From NCBI GenBank assembly GCA_000697355.1, contig JNEN01001249.1, forward strand, positions 248,001 to 312,000: a DNA stretch of 64,000 bases, given 5' to 3'. The DNA comes from Syncephalastrum monosporum B8922 (taxonomy: Eukaryota; Mucoromycota; Mucoromycetes; Mucorales; Syncephalastraceae). Below, one piece after another: positions 35,201 through 42,972 of the stretch. The notes under the pieces are model-generated. The model saw only the letters and a list, made by a program, of their open reading frames with translations. It searched no databases and was not told the origin of the DNA. The stretch's first letter is position 1, and each line of letters begins with the position of its first letter. The translations under genes and the position numbers were made by a program.

Positions 35201-36026
35201 TGCGCTCTCGAGCAAGACCGAGCCGGAATTATCCGACCACGAAGGCGAGGGCGAGGAGGGTGATGATTTGTCGCGCGACGTCGATCATGCCGACAGTCCT
35301 TCCACGGTAAAAGCAATTTGTTAATTTTTGTGGCTCCTGAGTGAACCCAACTCCCCCCCCCCTTTGTTTTTTGTCTAGATCGCCTCGCCTGCGCCCTACG
35401 GTCGACGCTATGATCGAGCCATGTCGGTGGACGACGACGAGGTCTCCGTGACAGGCAGTCTCAGCTCCCGAACGAGTTACCATCTCAACAACCCCAACAA
35501 GTATCTCGTCATCCGACGCCTGATTCGACAAAAGAATGGCGAAAAGACGTGGCAGCAGGACGTCGTGCGCGACCCGGTCGTCATCAAGTCGTACCTGCGG
35601 CAGCGCCAGATGATTGAGGAAGAAGCGACGAGTGCTGAAGCGCTGGAGCCGACGGATGATGTGGAAAAGAACGCGCGCATGAAGAAGCGTATCCAAGACC
35701 AGCTCGCCAAGCTCAAGCGGAACGCGGAGCGGCGACGTCAACGGCAGTTGGCCAAGCAGGCTGCTCTGGCCGAGAACCCGGTGCTGGGTCTGATCCGTGG
35801 CAAACGCGAAGGCGCGATGCGACGCTGCGGCAACTGCGGTCAGCTCGGCCACATGAAGACCAACAAGAACTGTCCAATGTTCCATGTCATGAACAACCTC
35901 AACAAAGAGAAGGAGGCCAAGGAAAAAGAAGCGGCTCAAAACGGAAAGGAGAAGGAAAAAGACAACACCAGCAATGGCGACACTGCAGGTGCAAGCGCGA
36001 CCGGCAGCGAGACGCCGGTGGAGTAG
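32275..36026 (+). CDS. TAF1: TFIID subunit TAF1
   Basis: Largest TFIID subunit, which organises promoter recognition in the nucleus. Seven exons (32275-32343, 32414-33208, 33257-33613, 33676-33858, 33918-34220, 34275-35306, 35379-36026) give 1128 residues. The N-terminus GNVDEQGRLDTDLDEEL is typical of the TBP-binding start. The conserved core carries FNLSNDKFYDSHYT, LRSFHRP, YYRKTEP, and MNFGNVEPGM. The winged-helix-like region follows (FPEYSDIQIRQRLKEF). A CCHC zinc knuckle (CGNCGQLGHMKTNKNC) lies near the C-terminus, followed by a charged Lys/Glu tail. There are no bromodomains, as in yeast TAF1. Intron 1 is best read as GC-AG (GCACGT donor). An alternative GT donor at 32368 would add nine residues to exon 1. 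Confidence 0.95.
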
Positions 36027-36889: not shown

Positions 36890-38321
36890 ATGTCGACGTC
36901 GCAGAAGCTCGTTCAGTTTGGCAAACAGCACATCGCCCGTGGTATCGGCCGTAGCACCGAGCTCGTCATCGAGCGCGGTCAAGGTTCGTATATCTACACC
37001 GTCGAGGGCAAGAAATACCTCGACCTCACCACTGGTAAGTCATAGAAAGGAATCTATAAAAGACGCGTTCGGATAAACTCATAGGCACATAGGTATTGGT
37101 GTCACCAACACGGGCCATTGCCATCCCAAGGTCGTCAAGGCTGTGCAGGACCAGGCTGCGACGCTGACCCACGGTCAGGTCAACCTCTTCTTCCAGAAGC
37201 CCCTGCTGGATCTCGTTGAGCGTCTGAAGCCCAAGATGCCCAGCAAGGAGCTCGATACCTTCTTCTTCTGGAACAGTGGCTCCGAGGCTGTTGAGGCTGC
37301 TGTCAAGCTCGCCCGTCACGCCACCAAGCGCCAGAACATCATCGTGTTCCAGGGATCGTACCACGGCCGTACGTTCGGCACCATGGCGCTGACGACCTCC
37401 AAGACGATCTACAGCGCCGGTTACAACCCGCTCATGCCCGGTGTCCACGTTGCGCCCTTCCCGTACTACCAGCAGTGGGCCGCGTACCGCGCCGACCCTA
37501 CCCGCTTCACGCCGGAATGGTGCTCCGAGGAGGCCCTCCACCAGGTCGAGCTTCTGCTCAAGCAGCGCTCTGCGCCCGAGGACACCGCCGCCGTCCTGAT
37601 CGAGCCCGTCCAGGGCGAGGGTGGCTACGTCGCTCCCCCTGCCAGTAAGTGAAAAGGAAAAAAGACAACTGGGAAAATGGAGGCTAAAGAGAGCCGGTAC
37701 GTAGGTTTCCTCAAGGGTCTCCGCGCTCTGTGCGATAAGCACGGCATCCTGATGATCTGCGACGAGGTCCAGTCCGGCTTTGGCCGCACCGGCAAGTTCT
37801 TTGCCGTCGAGCACTTTGGCGTCACGCCCGATATCCTGGTCATGGCCAAGGGCATCGCGTCCGGCTACCCTCTCTCGGCCATCGTGTCGCGCAAGGAGAT
37901 CATGGACAAGCAGCCCCCAGGATCGATGGGTGGTACCTACTCTGGTAACGCCGTCGCCTGTGCCGCCGCCAAGGCCACCCTCGACGTCTTTGACGAGGAG
38001 AAGGTCATCGAGAACTGCAATGCCCGTTCCGAGGAGTTCTACTCTGCTTTCCGCGCCAAGCTGCCCGGCATGTTGCCCAAGGGCGTCTCCGTCGACATTC
38101 GCGGTCTGGGTCTCATGATCGGTATCGAGTTCCTCGGTGTGCCTGCCGGTTTCGCCAACCAGGTCGCCCAGGAGGCGTTCAAGCGTGATGCCCTCGTCTT
38201 GACCACCTCCATCTACGAGACCCTCCGTCTCATTCCCCCGCTCAACATCTCCAAGGAGGACACTGACCTTGCCATCCAGGTTGTCCTTGAGAGTGTTGCG
38301 GCCGCTGCCAAGACCCTCTAA
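36890..38321 (+). CDS. Class-III PLP aminotransferase (4-aminobutyrate aminotransferase-like)
   Basis: Three exons (36890-37034, 37093-37644, 37705-38321) give 437 residues. Motifs: DLTTGIGVTNTGHCHP near the N-terminus, FFFWNSGSEAVEAAVKLAR, FQGSYHGRTFGT, LIEPVQGEGGY, the cofactor aspartate in ICDEVQSGFGRTGKFF, and the PLP lysine in VMAKGIASGYPLSA. GGTYSGNAVACAAA and a C-terminal small domain complete it. No mitochondrial presequence is evident, unlike acetylornithine aminotransferase, so a cytosolic GABA-type enzyme is more likely. Substrate remains inferred. Codon use is strongly biased toward C-ending codons, suggesting high expression. The TATA box and A-rich Kozak region fit that. Confidence 0.9.
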
Positions 38322-38544: not shown

Positions 38545-40120
38545 TTACATGCGGTGTAGAATATTATCCCGTTCGGCAGCCCAAATCGCGAGCATGTCAT
38601 CCTCCCATTCCTCCTTAGTCACGTGCTCACCAAGATAGGCGTCCGCCCGGAGCCGGTCCGGCACGTCGCCCCATCGCAAGTGCGACCAATCTTCCTCGTA
38701 TCGATTGACAGGCGAGGAATCATGAAGCCACAATCCGCTGCGTTTCTGCAGCGCCAGGGCCGGGTATCGTGCCTCGAGTTCGCCTGCGCGGGCCACGGTT
38801 TGCTCCACGTCCAGCGTGCGTGGTACACGGGTAATGAGTGAGTGTAATATATCCGCATCGGCCTTGAGAAGCTCGTCGCGCCTTAACAAGGTGATCTGAA
38901 GCTGCATGTGAGCGCATGTAGCCAAATGTATTTCGTGACATTTACCGCGCTCGAGACGTAGATGGGCATGAGGGGTGTGCTCGAGATGAACAAGTCAAAA
39001 AGACGTGCGACTTTGTCGAAGCATGCAATATCATGACTGAACCAGGTGAGGACCCAACTCAACGCGTAATAAGGCATGAGGTTGCATCTGGAATTAAAAA
39101 ATTACTACTTGCGCGCCTTTTTTTTTTCCTCGCTTTGGTTTGTTTGTTTGTTTACATACCTTTCAAGGTGCGCCGTCAGCTCGGGATCCTCGTATTGGAC
39201 AATGGAACTCATCAGGCGCAGCTGCTTGGATATTGGATCAAAGGAGTCGAGCATGCCATCTGTGTAACCATGGTCAAGGATAGATACAAACGAACGCTAT
39301 TCATGTGAGGCTAAGAGCATGAACCAAAGAAATAAACAAAAAAGGATATCTCAAAAAAAAGAGCGCGACGTTTTCGGCAGCAGGGATAGCGTCTTTCTTT
39401 CCGAGGACAAGCAGAAAGCAGCTGCAGATGTCATGAAACCCCTTCCAAGTCCACGTGAGCCGAGTCATCCTCCCTCTCTCCTGTCTTTTTGCCTTCTTTT
39501 GTCCTTACCTGATAGTACTTTAGTGTAGGGTTTCGCCAGAGCACCTCCACAATCATCTGGTGCAGTTCTTGTTGCATATGTGCCTTCAATATAGGAGACA
39601 CACCTGCCATCGTCTATGAGCTCGTTTTCATTTGTTCTTCTCTGTGAATACCTCTAGGATAATAATAGAGTGATCTTTCAACGTCCTTGGATATTTGGCT
39701 CGGATCTGCCAGATCCTTTTCTACAGCGTATTCATGTGGGTGACTCATTACGTGAATGGAGTGCGTTGTGCGTACCACTGCCTTTCTCATCGACGTAACA
39801 GCCGTGTTGGGTATGTAAAAGGACAGGCCTGGCATGCGTTGAATGAGCATACGCAGTGCAAGTTCTATTTTCCGTACCAAGCTAATCGTCGAAGGCGGTC
39901 GAGCATGAATCCGCCGGGAGCACGAGCCAAATTGCGGAGGGCGTCGAGATCCTTTCTGGCAATGGCCGCAAGGATTTGCTCCGCTCGGCGAGTACGTTGC
40001 CAGGAAGCGGCTGCGTGTATCAATAACGATAAGGTAGCGTATGAAAGGTGTTAATGCCAAAGCATCTGGTGCTTTTTTTGCATTCGTGTTACCGATGGAG
40101 CCCATCACACCGTCATGCAT
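38545..40120 (-). CDS. Rab GTPase-activating TBC-domain protein, Gyp8/TBC1D20-like
   Basis: Nine exons (40120-40093, 40010-39878, 39828-39776, 39720-39652, 39603-39509, 39441-39350, 39261-39160, 39087-38946, 38895-38545) give 354 residues. TBC motifs are in order: LDRLRRLAWPVLL, SKDVERSLYYYPRG, NPTLKYYQGFHDICSCFLLV, PAAENVALFFLRDGMLDSF, MPYYALSWVLTWFSHDI and VARLFDLFISSTPLMPIYVS. The catalytic Arg finger is the first R in SKDVERSLYYYP (the family's IxxDxxR motif), and the Gln finger is in YYQG. This order and the wording fit the TBC1D20/Gyp8 subfamily, which acts on Rab1/Ypt1-type GTPases at the ER-Golgi step. A C-terminal membrane anchor is not seen. The sixth intron is AT-AC type (see separate entry). 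The start could be 40120 or an in-frame ATG five codons on. Confidence 0.88.
39262..39349 (-). other. U12-type AT-AC intron in the TBC-domain gene
   Basis: On the minus strand the exon ends TTG AG and the intron begins ATATCCTTTTTTG, a perfect U12 5' splice site. It ends TCCTTGACC ATGGTTACAC, where TCCTTGAC matches the U12 branch consensus TCCTTRAC with the branch A 12 nt before the 3' end. Removing the 88 bp restores the family sequence ALFFLRDGMLDSF in frame. No GT-AG alternative gives that frame: using the nearby CAG acceptor would shift it. Confidence 0.92.
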
Positions 40121-41919
40121 AAAGATGGAGTACACAATAAAAGGGCGACAAAAGGAAATCAAAGCGGCACGGGTAGCATAGGTGAAGATTGAACAGCCAA
40201 TGAAAAGCTCGAATTATTGACGATGTTTGTCCAACAGTGCTGCTGCCTGGATAGTAAAAGATTCTGCTTTTGTATCCGCATTAATATCATACTAGGTATA
40301 AAGCTAAAACATGCACGTTGCCAAGGAAAATGATAAAGTATGATGAACTTTGAAAGTTTTACTTTTCGATGGTAATCACATCTACTAAGAAGGCCCATAG
40401 CGTAGCTTCCGAATGCAATGTTCCAAGTTAAGGCAAGTATAGGACCATTTGAAAGTGAGCAAATAATAAAGACATATTGGGTTTGGACGAACTGAACCCG
40501 GCATTTCTTTGTCTTGTTCGACAAAAGCGGGGCCGTACAACAGTCTATCAATGAAATAGATACAGCGCTTAATGGGACGCCTTTAGCTGAGCTAGCAAAT
40601 ATAGCCGGTAACATACGGAGCCATGCGACGAGAAGAGTCACTTCTTAATGTTTACTCCATTGCGTCCCATTAAAGAGCCTTCAGGAACAGTAACGCGGAC
40701 CATTATACATGCCGACATTCAATAGCATGTTTCGATGGGATGAGAAAGAACTTGATGTGGCTGCATCTTCTAGATAGAAAGCGACGTATCATCAGACACA
40801 CATCCGAGCTTTAAAAGGAATGACAACATCAGCAGCATGCATTAGGTGATAAGAGACGAAAGTCATCGATGAATAAGCGCAGATAACGGGGTATTCGGAT
40901 GGAAACAGTGCCGCGCGACATGCACCCATCCGAATTCTGTAAAAGTACCTTGTCGCGTGACCAGCTTTCGGGCTGGCGTCACTCGGTTTTCAGGAGAACC
41001 AGCCATGCTCTCGGCCCGTCCCAACCGTCCGCAGGCCCCCCTTCAATCTCGCCAATTGTTGGATCCAGAGCTAATGCCAATAAAAGTCTATGTTTCATTC
41101 TTGGAGGACATTAATTCACTTCGCGTCTACACAATCATAAGTGCTTCAGAGGGAAGAAGGTGCACAGTGTATTTACGCAGATCGGTGATGCATTCCATGC
41201 CCTTCGCGGACAATGACTTTCTGGGTCGTCAGCTTCGTTGGCCAAGCTCAGAATGACCGATGAACGTGGTTGATGTAATCATTTCATAAAAGGAAGAAGA
41301 GCTTTAGGTAATGGGAGAGAAAAAACGCAAAGGTTATTTAGAAAAGCCGAGGAGTCCCCAAACGGTAAAGGCCAGAGACGCCTTCAATGAAACTGAGCCG
41401 ATCCACCGCGCGCGGGCCCGCAACCAATGAATTTCTGCTGTTTGACTCACTTCGGGCAATGGAAAACCGACCCGACTGCCGGCCACGGATGACTCAGTCC
41501 TATCACTTTTGTCTCATCTGGATCACCCGGGCGGCGGCGGCGGCGATGGTGGTGGTGGTGCTGGTCATTCCTACAGCCACGCCGCCGCGTATCCTCTTTG
41601 AGCCACCGCACATAAGACATATGTAATCGTATAGCACATTAGTGGATTTTGGGGTTGAGTTAATCTTGGCAAGGTGTGAATGTGGCAAGCACGCTGTGTG
41701 CCACGTTTGGGAACCCAAATAGAAATTTTTAGTATCAGGCTGCTCCATTGTCTTGAAAATGAATCAGCGCCCGCCTGTCACCATGGTGACAACCCTCCAA
41801 ATACGGCAAGCCAATGACACGCAAGCCGAACGGACGCTCGCTCGCTTATAAATTGGGAGCCCCTTCCTCGCATAACAGAAAAAAAATAATTTACTTTTTC
41901 TCTTCTTTACTTTTCCCCA
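40121..41919. other. 1.8-kb stretch with coding-like shreds but no supported gene
   Basis: Most frames are short. A plus-strand stretch at about 40507-40648 and another at about 41050-41256 read like protein (for example PIKVYVSFLEDINSLRV) but have no start, splice partner or known domain. The last 100 bases hold the promoter of the C2H2 gene. Confidence 0.45.
41847..41853 (+). promoter_or_regulatory. TATA box of C2H2 gene
   Basis: TATAAAT lies 67 bp before the start codon. Confidence 0.5.
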
Positions 41920-42972
41920 ATGAACTACGAGGAGCCACAGCAGCAAGAGCAACAGCCTCTTTTTTATTCGCCTCTGCCGTTTCTTTCGCCTGATGTGGCC
42001 ACCGCCTCGCTGAGCGGCTCACCCGCACTCAATACGCCTGCAGCGTCGACCGCTAATGGCATGTATCCGTCGCCTGTCCAGCACACCAACACAAACACTG
42101 CTCTCAATCAAGTGAGCTGGCAGATGCACAAGAATGATTTTGATCTGCTTATGGACCCGGCCCTCTACTTTGACGGTAATCCTATCTCTGTCCTTCTTGA
42201 CAAGAGCCGCGCTGTGCCTGAGGCCACGACGTACCCACACGAGCAAGTCTTTAACGTCGATTCTCTCAAGGCACATTATCACCAGCCTCTCGACTTTGCC
42301 TACACTCCCGAGACGACCATGGACGGCCCTGCCTCTGTGAGCATGCAGGACAGCCCGGCGATCCAGATCCCAGCCAGCGATGATACACCGATGATTCCGC
42401 AGCATCAGCAGCTGACATTTTATGGCGGCGGCGGCGGCGTTGAGTACGACAATGCACACACCATCCAAACACCTTATCTCGAGGAGCATCACTTCTCTTC
42501 GACAGGCAACTCTTATCATCATGACAACTACGCCCAAAACCACGACACATCCAGCCTTTTTCCACCGTTGCCAAGCGATGAGGTTGAGTTCCAGGAAGAA
42601 CGACCCGTACAAGGCGAGGTGAAGGAAGAAGAGGCACAGGATGAGCAAGAAGAAAAAGAAGAAGTTGTCCAAGAGACTCGGCATGCCAAGAAGCCAAGGC
42701 GCAAGGCACCCAAATTCCATCCTTGCCCAGAGTGCCACCGCACCTTCGATCGCAAGTACAACATGACCACCCATCTTCGCACGCATGACAAGGCTCGCAA
42801 GAAGCCATTCCAGTGCCGCGTGGGCTGCAAGAAGTCGTTTGATCGCAAACACGATCGCGAGCGCCACGAAGCGTCTGTCCACCGCCAGGAGCGTCTTTAT
42901 ACGTGTGGACAGTGCCGTGCTTCGTTTGCACGCCGTGATGCCCTCCACAAACATACAGATATGTGCTGCTAA
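41920..42972 (+). CDS. C2H2 zinc-finger transcription factor
   Basis: An intronless frame gives 350 residues. The first 240 are low complexity (Gln, Pro, Ser, His; then an acidic run EEEAQDEQEEKEE). Three C2H2 fingers close the protein: FHPCPECHRTFDRKYNMTTH, FQCRVGCKKSFDRKHDRERH and YTCGQCRASFARRDALHKH. A basic segment KKPRRKAPK before the first finger is a likely nuclear signal. Finger helices RKYNMTTHLR, RKHDRERHEA and RRDALHKH suggest DNA binding in the Egr/Msn-like style, but targets cannot be named. The compact TATA-driven promoter suggests regulated expression. Confidence 0.9.
   Translation: MNYEEPQQQEQQPLFYSPLPFLSPDVATASLSGSPALNTPAASTANGMYPSPVQHTNTNTALNQVSWQMHKNDFDLLMDPALYFDGNPISVLLDKSRAVPEATTYPHEQVFNVDSLKAHYHQPLDFAYTPETTMDGPASVSMQDSPAIQIPASDDTPMIPQHQQLTFYGGGGGVEYDNAHTIQTPYLEEHHFSSTGNSYHHDNYAQNHDTSSLFPPLPSDEVEFQEERPVQGEVKEEEAQDEQEEKEEVVQETRHAKKPRRKAPKFHPCPECHRTFDRKYNMTTHLRTHDKARKKPFQCRVGCKKSFDRKHDRERHEASVHRQERLYTCGQCRASFARRDALHKHTDMCC

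What the first reader, a model, noticed from the sequence alone, without database searches (positions are those of the whole stretch)
39262..39349. U12-type AT-AC intron in a fungal TBC/Rab-GAP gene
The 5' end ATATCCTTT, the branch element TCCTTGAC and the AC 3' end all match the U12 consensus, with the branch A 12 nt from the splice site. Splicing restores ALFFLRDGMLDSF exactly in frame. U12 introns are lost from most Dikarya, so this indicates that the organism keeps a minor spliceosome. This is also the reason a naive gene caller would break or truncate this gene.
Basis: partly seen in the sequence, partly recalled or inferred. Interest (0 to 1): 0.85.

Follow-up and report, generated by a model that had tools for sequence, protein, structure and literature searches.

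The report
Minor-spliceosome intron in a Mucorales gene
A rare kind of intron, cut out by the cell's second, minor splicing machine, sits in a membrane-traffic gene of a Syncephalastrum-like mould; the intron is of a known kind, and it appears to trip gene-finding software in several related fungi.

Summary
On the minus strand, 39349-39262 is an 88-nt AT-AC intron (ATATCCTTT ... TCCTTGAC, 12 nt, AC) in a 9-exon TBC1D20/Gyp8 gene. Splicing gives ALFFLRDGMLDSF, which aligns without a gap at the junction to human TBC1D20 and to 16 fungal orthologues. None of 9 frame-keeping GT-AG alternatives restores it. The motif pair occurs once in the window and in 0 of 100 shuffles.

The organism is not Dikarya but a Mucorales fungus, 96% identical to Syncephalastrum racemosum at a neighbouring protein. 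U12 introns and minor snRNAs are already published for Mucorales. The genome carries U11 and U6atac above Rfam cut-offs and eight further AT-AC U12-type candidates, four with a family match spanning the junction. A U12 snRNA candidate is only suggestive; U4atac was not found.

Modestly new: 14 of the 62 closest protein models are misread at this junction, one reading FLRYPFL as if translating the intron's 5' end. So the intron looks old in Mucoromycotina and damages annotations. Verdict: real, a new member of a known kind.

The parts
39262..39349 (-). AT-AC U12-type intron (intron 6 of 8), 88 nt, phase 2
   Evidence: protein continuity
39341..39349 (-). U12-type 5' splice site ATATCCTTT; complementary to the U11 5' end AAAAAGG and to U6atac AAAGGA
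39273..39280 (-). branch element TCCTTGAC, branch A at 39274, 12 nt before the exon
39262..39263 (-). 3' splice site AC (...GTTACAC|AGATGG)
39350..39441 (-). exon 6 (GFHDICSCF...ALFFLR)
39160..39261 (-). exon 7 (DGMLDSFDPIS...HLER)
40093..40105 (-). exon 1, 13 nt with proposed start codon (start is inferred)
39878..40010 (-). exon 2
39776..39828 (-). exon 3
39652..39720 (-). exon 4 (holds the IxxDxxR arginine motif ISKDVER)
39509..39603 (-). exon 5 (ends in the YYQ motif)
38946..39087 (-). exon 8
38545..38901 (-). exon 9 with stop codon; relatives favour a start 6 nt further in, at 38895 (tandem acceptors)

Best explanation
This is a genuine U12-type (minor spliceosome) intron of the AT-AC subtype in the TBC1D20/Gyp8 Rab-GAP gene of a Syncephalastrum-like Mucorales fungus. 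The U11 snRNA 5' end (AAAAAGG) and then U6atac (AAAGGA) would pair with AUAUCCUUU. U12 would pair with UCCUUGAC and bulge the branch A, and the intron would leave as a lariat, joining ALFFL-R-DGML. Shown: sequence match, frame, protein continuity, presence of U11 and U6atac genes and their complementarity. Inferred: actual splicing, use of U12, presence of U4atac, and conservation of the intron in other Mucoromycotina (from how their gene models are misread).
For: Element-by-element match; 1 hit in the window against 0 of 100 shuffles; alignment without a gap at the junction to human TBC1D20 4hl4, E=3.6e-48, and to 16 fungal orthologues chosen from the 111 hits, with R152, D153 and M155 invariant; no GT-AG alternative restores this; U6atac and U11 above Rfam cut-offs, re-identified by cmscan; eight further AT-AC candidates, four with a family match spanning the junction; U11 and U6atac words pair with all 9 AT-AC 5' ends (-5.8 to -6.8 kcal/mol), while the 7 major introns of the same gene reach at best -4.2 with U11 and -1.2 with U6atac; published U12 introns in Rhizopus and Phycomyces (passages).
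Against: No RNA reads. U4atac was not found: the only RF00618 hit at E<=10 is the major U4, and a pattern predicted from the U6atac sequence gave 5 hits (control 1), none followed by a clear Sm site in the 110 bases printed. RF00007 finds no U12 (42 of 1191 first-look candidates were scored). The U12 candidate L066 has no Rfam match, its search pattern was not enriched over control (15 vs 19), its upstream part pairs with U6atac less well than 10 of the other 14 hits, and an antisense stop-to-stop frame of 120 codons crosses it. U4 does not pair with U6atac above shuffles, so it gives no stand-in for U4atac.
Confidence: 0.96

Rival explanations
1. The region is a U2-type GT-AG (or GC-AG) intron with different borders and the AT-AC look is chance.
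For: The gene has seven ordinary GT-AG introns, and four relatives' gene models show Y for D at this place, as an AG two bases past the AC would give.
Against: All 9 frame-keeping GT-AG combinations delete or add conserved residues. In the 17 aligned sequences R152, D153 and M155 are invariant. Four motif parts would have to coincide at the junction.
Confidence: 0.02
2. It is an AT-AC intron removed by the major (U2-type) spliceosome, as rare U2-type AT-AC introns are elsewhere (recalled).
For: Not all U12 machinery was found (U4atac none, U12 candidate only).
Against: It has the full U12 5' and branch consensus, complementarity to U11 and U6atac, and U11 and U6atac genes exist.
Confidence: 0.02
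3. The gene is a pseudogene or an assembly error, so the break is not an intron.
For: Nothing specific seen.
Against: The nine exons join into one open frame with normal borders elsewhere, 61-71% identical to the 22 best hits; other AT-AC candidates share the layout.
Confidence: 0.01

Closest known systems
U12-type AT-AC introns of Mucorales (Rhizopus oryzae, Phycomyces blakesleeanus; PMC2846911, passages seen)
   Same: AT-AC ends, RTATCCTT 5' site, order Mucorales
   Different: This gene was not found with minor/U12 introns in the library under the terms tried; the strong candidates here are all AT-AC, while Phycomyces had 8-9 AT-AC and 8-12 GT-AG, and R. oryzae 1 and 2-3
Minor spliceosome RNAs of Lichtheimia corymbifera (PMC4133162, passages seen)
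   Same: U11 and a divergent U6atac present; U4atac not found; U12 altered
   Different: A U12 was identified there; here only a candidate (L066)
Minor introns of Rhizophagus irregularis (205) and Basidiobolus meristosporus (249) (PMC10639083, passages seen)
   Same: Retained minor splicing in fungi outside Dikarya
   Different: Far more introns than the nine candidates found here by pattern, which is not a full census
TBC1D20/Gyp8 Rab-GAP family (4hl4, 4hlq)
   Same: TBC domain aligned over residues 23-280, E=3.6e-48
   Different: C-terminal membrane anchor not examined

Membership tests
U12-type intron, AT-AC subtype | 5' splice site RTATCCTT | tested here: met
   ATATCCTTT at 39349-39341
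U12-type intron, AT-AC subtype | branch element TCCTTRAC close to the 3' end | tested here: met
   TCCTTGAC, 12 nt after the branch A
U12-type intron, AT-AC subtype | AC 3' end with exact exon continuity | tested here: met
U12-type intron, AT-AC subtype | U11 snRNA in the genome | tested here: met
   C183:461390-461530, 77 bits vs 39
U12-type intron, AT-AC subtype | U6atac snRNA in the genome | tested here: met
   C173:105472-105600, 54.2 bits vs 33
U12-type intron, AT-AC subtype | U12 snRNA in the genome | tested here: inconclusive
   No Rfam hit. Candidate C58:94026-94086(-): ATGAGTAAGGATGATA, hairpin, AATTTTTT; best of 15 pattern hits at pairing with the introns' branch extensions, 33 of 45 cells vs 30 for the next; worse than 10 of the other 14 at U6atac pairing
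U12-type intron, AT-AC subtype | U4atac snRNA in the genome | tested here: inconclusive
   Not found; the search is not sensitive to divergent forms. Also reported as not detected in Lichtheimia and Apophysomyces
U12-type intron, AT-AC subtype | U11/U12-specific proteins | not tested
U12-type intron, AT-AC subtype | splicing seen in RNA | not testable with these tools
   no reads on hand
TBC1D20/Gyp8 Rab-GAP | TBC domain | tested here: met
   PF00566 4.7e-24, 85.7 bits vs 25.2
TBC1D20/Gyp8 Rab-GAP | closest to TBC1D20 among solved proteins | tested here: met
   4hl4/4hlq 3.6e-48 and 4.3e-48; next TBC1D14 1.6e-6
TBC1D20/Gyp8 Rab-GAP | catalytic IxxDxxR and YxQ residues (motifs recalled) | tested here: met
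   ISKDVER and YYQ; D79, R82, Y119, Q121 invariant in the 17 sequences aligned
TBC1D20/Gyp8 Rab-GAP | C-terminal membrane anchor (recalled for the human protein) | not tested
   -

The most novel reading that the evidence does not exclude
In the Syncephalastrum/Lichtheimia branch of Mucorales the minor spliceosome has become a small, specialised AT-AC machine: a shrunken U12 pairs with a lengthened branch signal (TATCATCCTTRAC against GUAAGGAUGAUA), nearly all surviving minor introns are AT-AC, and U4atac is lost or changed beyond recognition. The TBC1D20 intron is one of its ancient, shared targets across Mucoromycotina.
Probability: 0.2. Interest if true: 0.55.

Novelty: new member of a known kind. 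Interest (0 to 1): 0.36.

Why it matters
It adds a Syncephalastrum-like Mucorales genome to the fungi that keep minor splicing and gives a set of AT-AC introns that can be tested. The TBC1D20 intron shows how one AT-AC intron goes with wrong gene models in several genera, so surveys that start from annotated introns may miss such introns. If the AT-AC bias, the reduced U12 and the missing U4atac hold up, this lineage would let one ask how far a minor spliceosome can shrink.

Tried and rejected
Dikarya origin: rejected by the relatives.

GT-AG reading of the same interval: rejected. My first gene model had wrong borders at some exons and two stops; it was corrected.

U12 by Rfam, E<=0.001 and E<=10: nothing; 42 of 1191 first-look candidates scored each time. 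U12 by a human-like 28-mer with 3 mismatches: nothing. U12 by AGTAAGGA...ATTTTTG: 6 hits vs 11 control, none convincing. U12 by GTAAGGA...AATTTTT: 15 hits vs 19 control; L066 kept as a candidate on its details only. Results against L066: no Rfam match; U6atac pairing of -6.4 kcal/mol, weaker than 10 of the other 14 hits; an antisense stop-to-stop frame of 120 codons and a sense one of 60 codons cross it (not searched for relatives). Its mid hairpin had z -1.57 against mononucleotide shuffles, second of 15. A shared promoter word among U4, U11 and L066 was looked for; U4-L066 and U11-L066 share one 8-mer each, U4-U11 none.

U4atac: the RF00618 hit is the major U4; the compensatory pattern gave 5 hits vs 1 control, none followed by a clear Sm site in the 110 bases printed, judged by eye. 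U4 as a stand-in for U4atac: U6atac-U4 -17.4 kcal/mol against shuffled mean -18.8, while the control U6-U4 gives -32.3 against -19.0: not supported.

GT-AG U12 introns: 11 relaxed hits vs 4 control. I judged none convincing; part of the printout that tested them was cut, so this rests on the rows shown and on the matched sequences.

Candidates L015, L023 and L063 have no support beyond motif and an open frame (L015, L023 no Pfam hit; L063 not submitted); L014 matches only below cut-offs (best Zn_ribbon_RlmA 3.4e-05, zf-TFIIIC 0.015). An open frame across short exons is weak evidence by itself.

Full report
The feature. The finding lies on the minus strand of a gene of nine exons (40105 to 38545; 351 codons as modelled). 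Intron 6, 39349-39262, begins ATATCCTTT, carries TCCTTGAC with 12 bases after the branch A, and ends in AC. The other seven introns are GT-AG, 44-82 nt. The pattern ATATCCTT...CCTTRAC occurs once in the window and in 0 of 100 shuffles.

The protein. The spliced product is a TBC1D20/Gyp8 Rab-GAP: PF00566 at 4.7e-24, human TBC1D20 structures 4hl4/4hlq at 3.6e-48 and 4.3e-48 with no gap at the junction (LFFLRDGML against THHLRDFMD). In an alignment with 16 of the 111 homologues found, the junction residues R152, D153 and M155 are invariant. I enumerated 35 frame-keeping, stop-free splices of the interval, this one included; 9 are GT-AG, and only the AT-AC one at 39349/39262 gives the orthologue sequence. 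Relatives read SA-ITLLRR where my model reads SALQITLLRR, so intron 8 probably uses the second of two AGs six bases apart and the protein would have 349 residues; this does not touch the finding.

The organism. The closest named TBC1D20 relatives are Mucorales: Rhizomucor pusillus 71%, Fennellomyces 71%, Circinella 70%, Phycomyces 66%. A neighbouring aminotransferase is 96% identical to Syncephalastrum racemosum, the next hit being 81%; Syncephalastrum is in Mucorales, Mucoromycota. So it is probably a Syncephalastrum species or close kin, not Dikarya. The genome held has 27.5 Mb in 198 contigs.

The machinery. U6atac is at C173:105472-105600 (54.2 bits, cut-off 33) and U11 at C183:461390-461530 (77 bits, cut-off 39); both keep these names in a scan of their loci against Rfam. 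U4atac was not found: the one weak hit is the major U4, 102.8 bits, and a pattern built from the complement of this U6atac gave 5 hits against 1 control, none with a clear Sm site. RF00007 found no U12. A pattern for the branch-binding word and an Sm site gave 15 hits, not above its control of 19. One of them, L066 (C58:94026-94086, minus), reads ATGAGTAAGGATGATA, then a hairpin with a UUGACG loop, then AATTTTTT. Of the 15 hits it pairs best with the bases upstream of the branch element in the nine introns (33 of 45 Watson-Crick; next 30 and 25; recalled human U12 18). ATGAGTAAGGA equals the human U12 word (recalled). Against it: no Rfam match, U6atac pairing worse than 10 of the other 14 hits, open frames of 120 codons (antisense) and 60 codons (sense) across it, and a GT start and an AG further on that could make it an ordinary intron. 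I hold it as a candidate only. These gaps resemble published work: U12 reduced and U4atac undetected in Lichtheimia (passages of PMC4133162), U12 and U4atac not found in Apophysomyces (passage of PMC5604411).

Other introns. TATCCTT...TCCTTRAC gave 15 genome matches against 4 for the reversed pattern. Eight of the 15 begin ATATCCTTTT and can be spliced in frame at an AC 10-19 bases after the branch A: L014, L015, L019, L021, L022, L023, L024 and L025, the last being this intron. In L022 the frame-keeping ACs lie 4 and 19 bases away; I used 19. A relaxed search gave 16 against 3 and added L063. Family matches spanning the junction support four of the eight others: PME-1 (L021, 1.4e-13; two extra residues in the human protein just before the junction), importin-9 (L024, 3.6e-5, and PF03810 above its cut-off), an ion-transport protein (L019, PF00520 1.4e-6, above its cut-off; weak PDB match 0.0013) and Vps3 (L022, 1.9e-5; with a three-residue gap near the junction). 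L014 has only sub-threshold zinc-ribbon matches, L015 and L023 none, and L063 was not submitted. The same relaxed search with G at position 1 gave 11 against 4, and I judged none of the 11 a convincing intron (the latter's printout partly cut). So among strong-consensus candidates AT-AC is 9 and GT-AG 0; a survey with weaker consensus could change that. For comparison Phycomyces had 8-9 AT-AC and 8-12 GT-AG (PMC2846911), and about 26% of human minor introns are AT-AC (PMC10639083).

Mechanism. The 5' end of U11 (AAAAAGG) and the U6atac word AAAGGA pair with all nine AT-AC 5' ends at -5.8 to -6.8 kcal/mol, while the seven major introns of this gene reach at best -4.2 with U11 and -1.2 with U6atac. 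The steps of recognition and lariat formation are inferred from established knowledge of the minor spliceosome.

Age and effect on annotation. Of the 62 best protein hits (P0001-P0062; some unnamed), 48 read cleanly through the junction by a motif test and 14 do not. Four show Y in place of D before AMLDSF (Spinellus, Chlamydoabsidia, one of two Phycomyces models, Cunninghamella), as an AG two bases past the AC would give. Two start at the methionine just after the junction (Absidia glauca, Umbelopsis nana). Four enter exon 7 through ...TD[AG]ML (Jimgerdemannia, Endogone, Umbelopsis vinacea, Funneliformis), one through LSDAML (Umbelopsis vinacea). Two skip the exon (Endogone, Jimgerdemannia). 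One Jimgerdemannia model reads ALFFLRYPFL, letter for letter what this window would give if the intron's first bases AG|ATATCCTTTTTTG were translated. I did not see the DNA of those species, so a shared AT-AC intron is an inference, strongest for Jimgerdemannia. The remaining 49 hits (P0063-P0111) and P0153-P0155 are more distant or fragments; I drew nothing from the motif test for them.

Novelty. U12 introns and minor snRNAs in Mucorales are known. Searches of the held library for TBC1D20 with minor intron and for Gyp8 with U12 intron gave 0 papers each, and Syncephalastrum with genome and spliceosom gave only the Lichtheimia paper. The case is a new member of a known kind, with a useful lesson about annotation and an open question about the AT-AC bias, U12 and U4atac.

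Noticed in passing
window 38896-38945: Intron 8 (before exon 9) has tandem acceptors six bases apart (GCAG|CTTCAG|ATC); orthologues favour the second.
   Followed up: partly
window 40093-40105: The proposed first coding exon is only 13 nt (ATGGGCTCCATCG).
   Followed up: no
window 36890-38321 (+): Class III aminotransferase (4-aminobutyrate transaminase-like), 96% to Syncephalastrum racemosum; neighbours the TBC gene. In Rhizomucor and one Apophysomyces the names of the two relatives are consecutive (VTP01DRAFT_6630/6631; DFQ28_009260/009259), suggesting a conserved pair.
   Followed up: partly
window 35379-36026 (+): Open frame with a CGNCGQLGHMKTNKNCP zinc knuckle, looks like the C-terminal part of TAF1 (recalled resemblance).
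   Followed up: no
window 41890-42972 (+): Open frame with C2H2 zinc-finger motifs and an acidic stretch.
   Followed up: no
L001 1501-1629: U6atac differs from the Rfam consensus at AAGGUUAGC (here AUCUUUGGC) and in the 3' stem-loop; a matching U4atac was not found.
   Followed up: partly
L002, L003, L004, L005: Four major U6 gene copies with the same core and two kinds of upstream region.
   Followed up: no
L019 about 1500: An ion-transport (voltage-gated channel type) gene carries one of the AT-AC candidates; the abstract of PMC6865273 in the listing names voltage-gated channels among gene families enriched in minor introns.
   Followed up: partly
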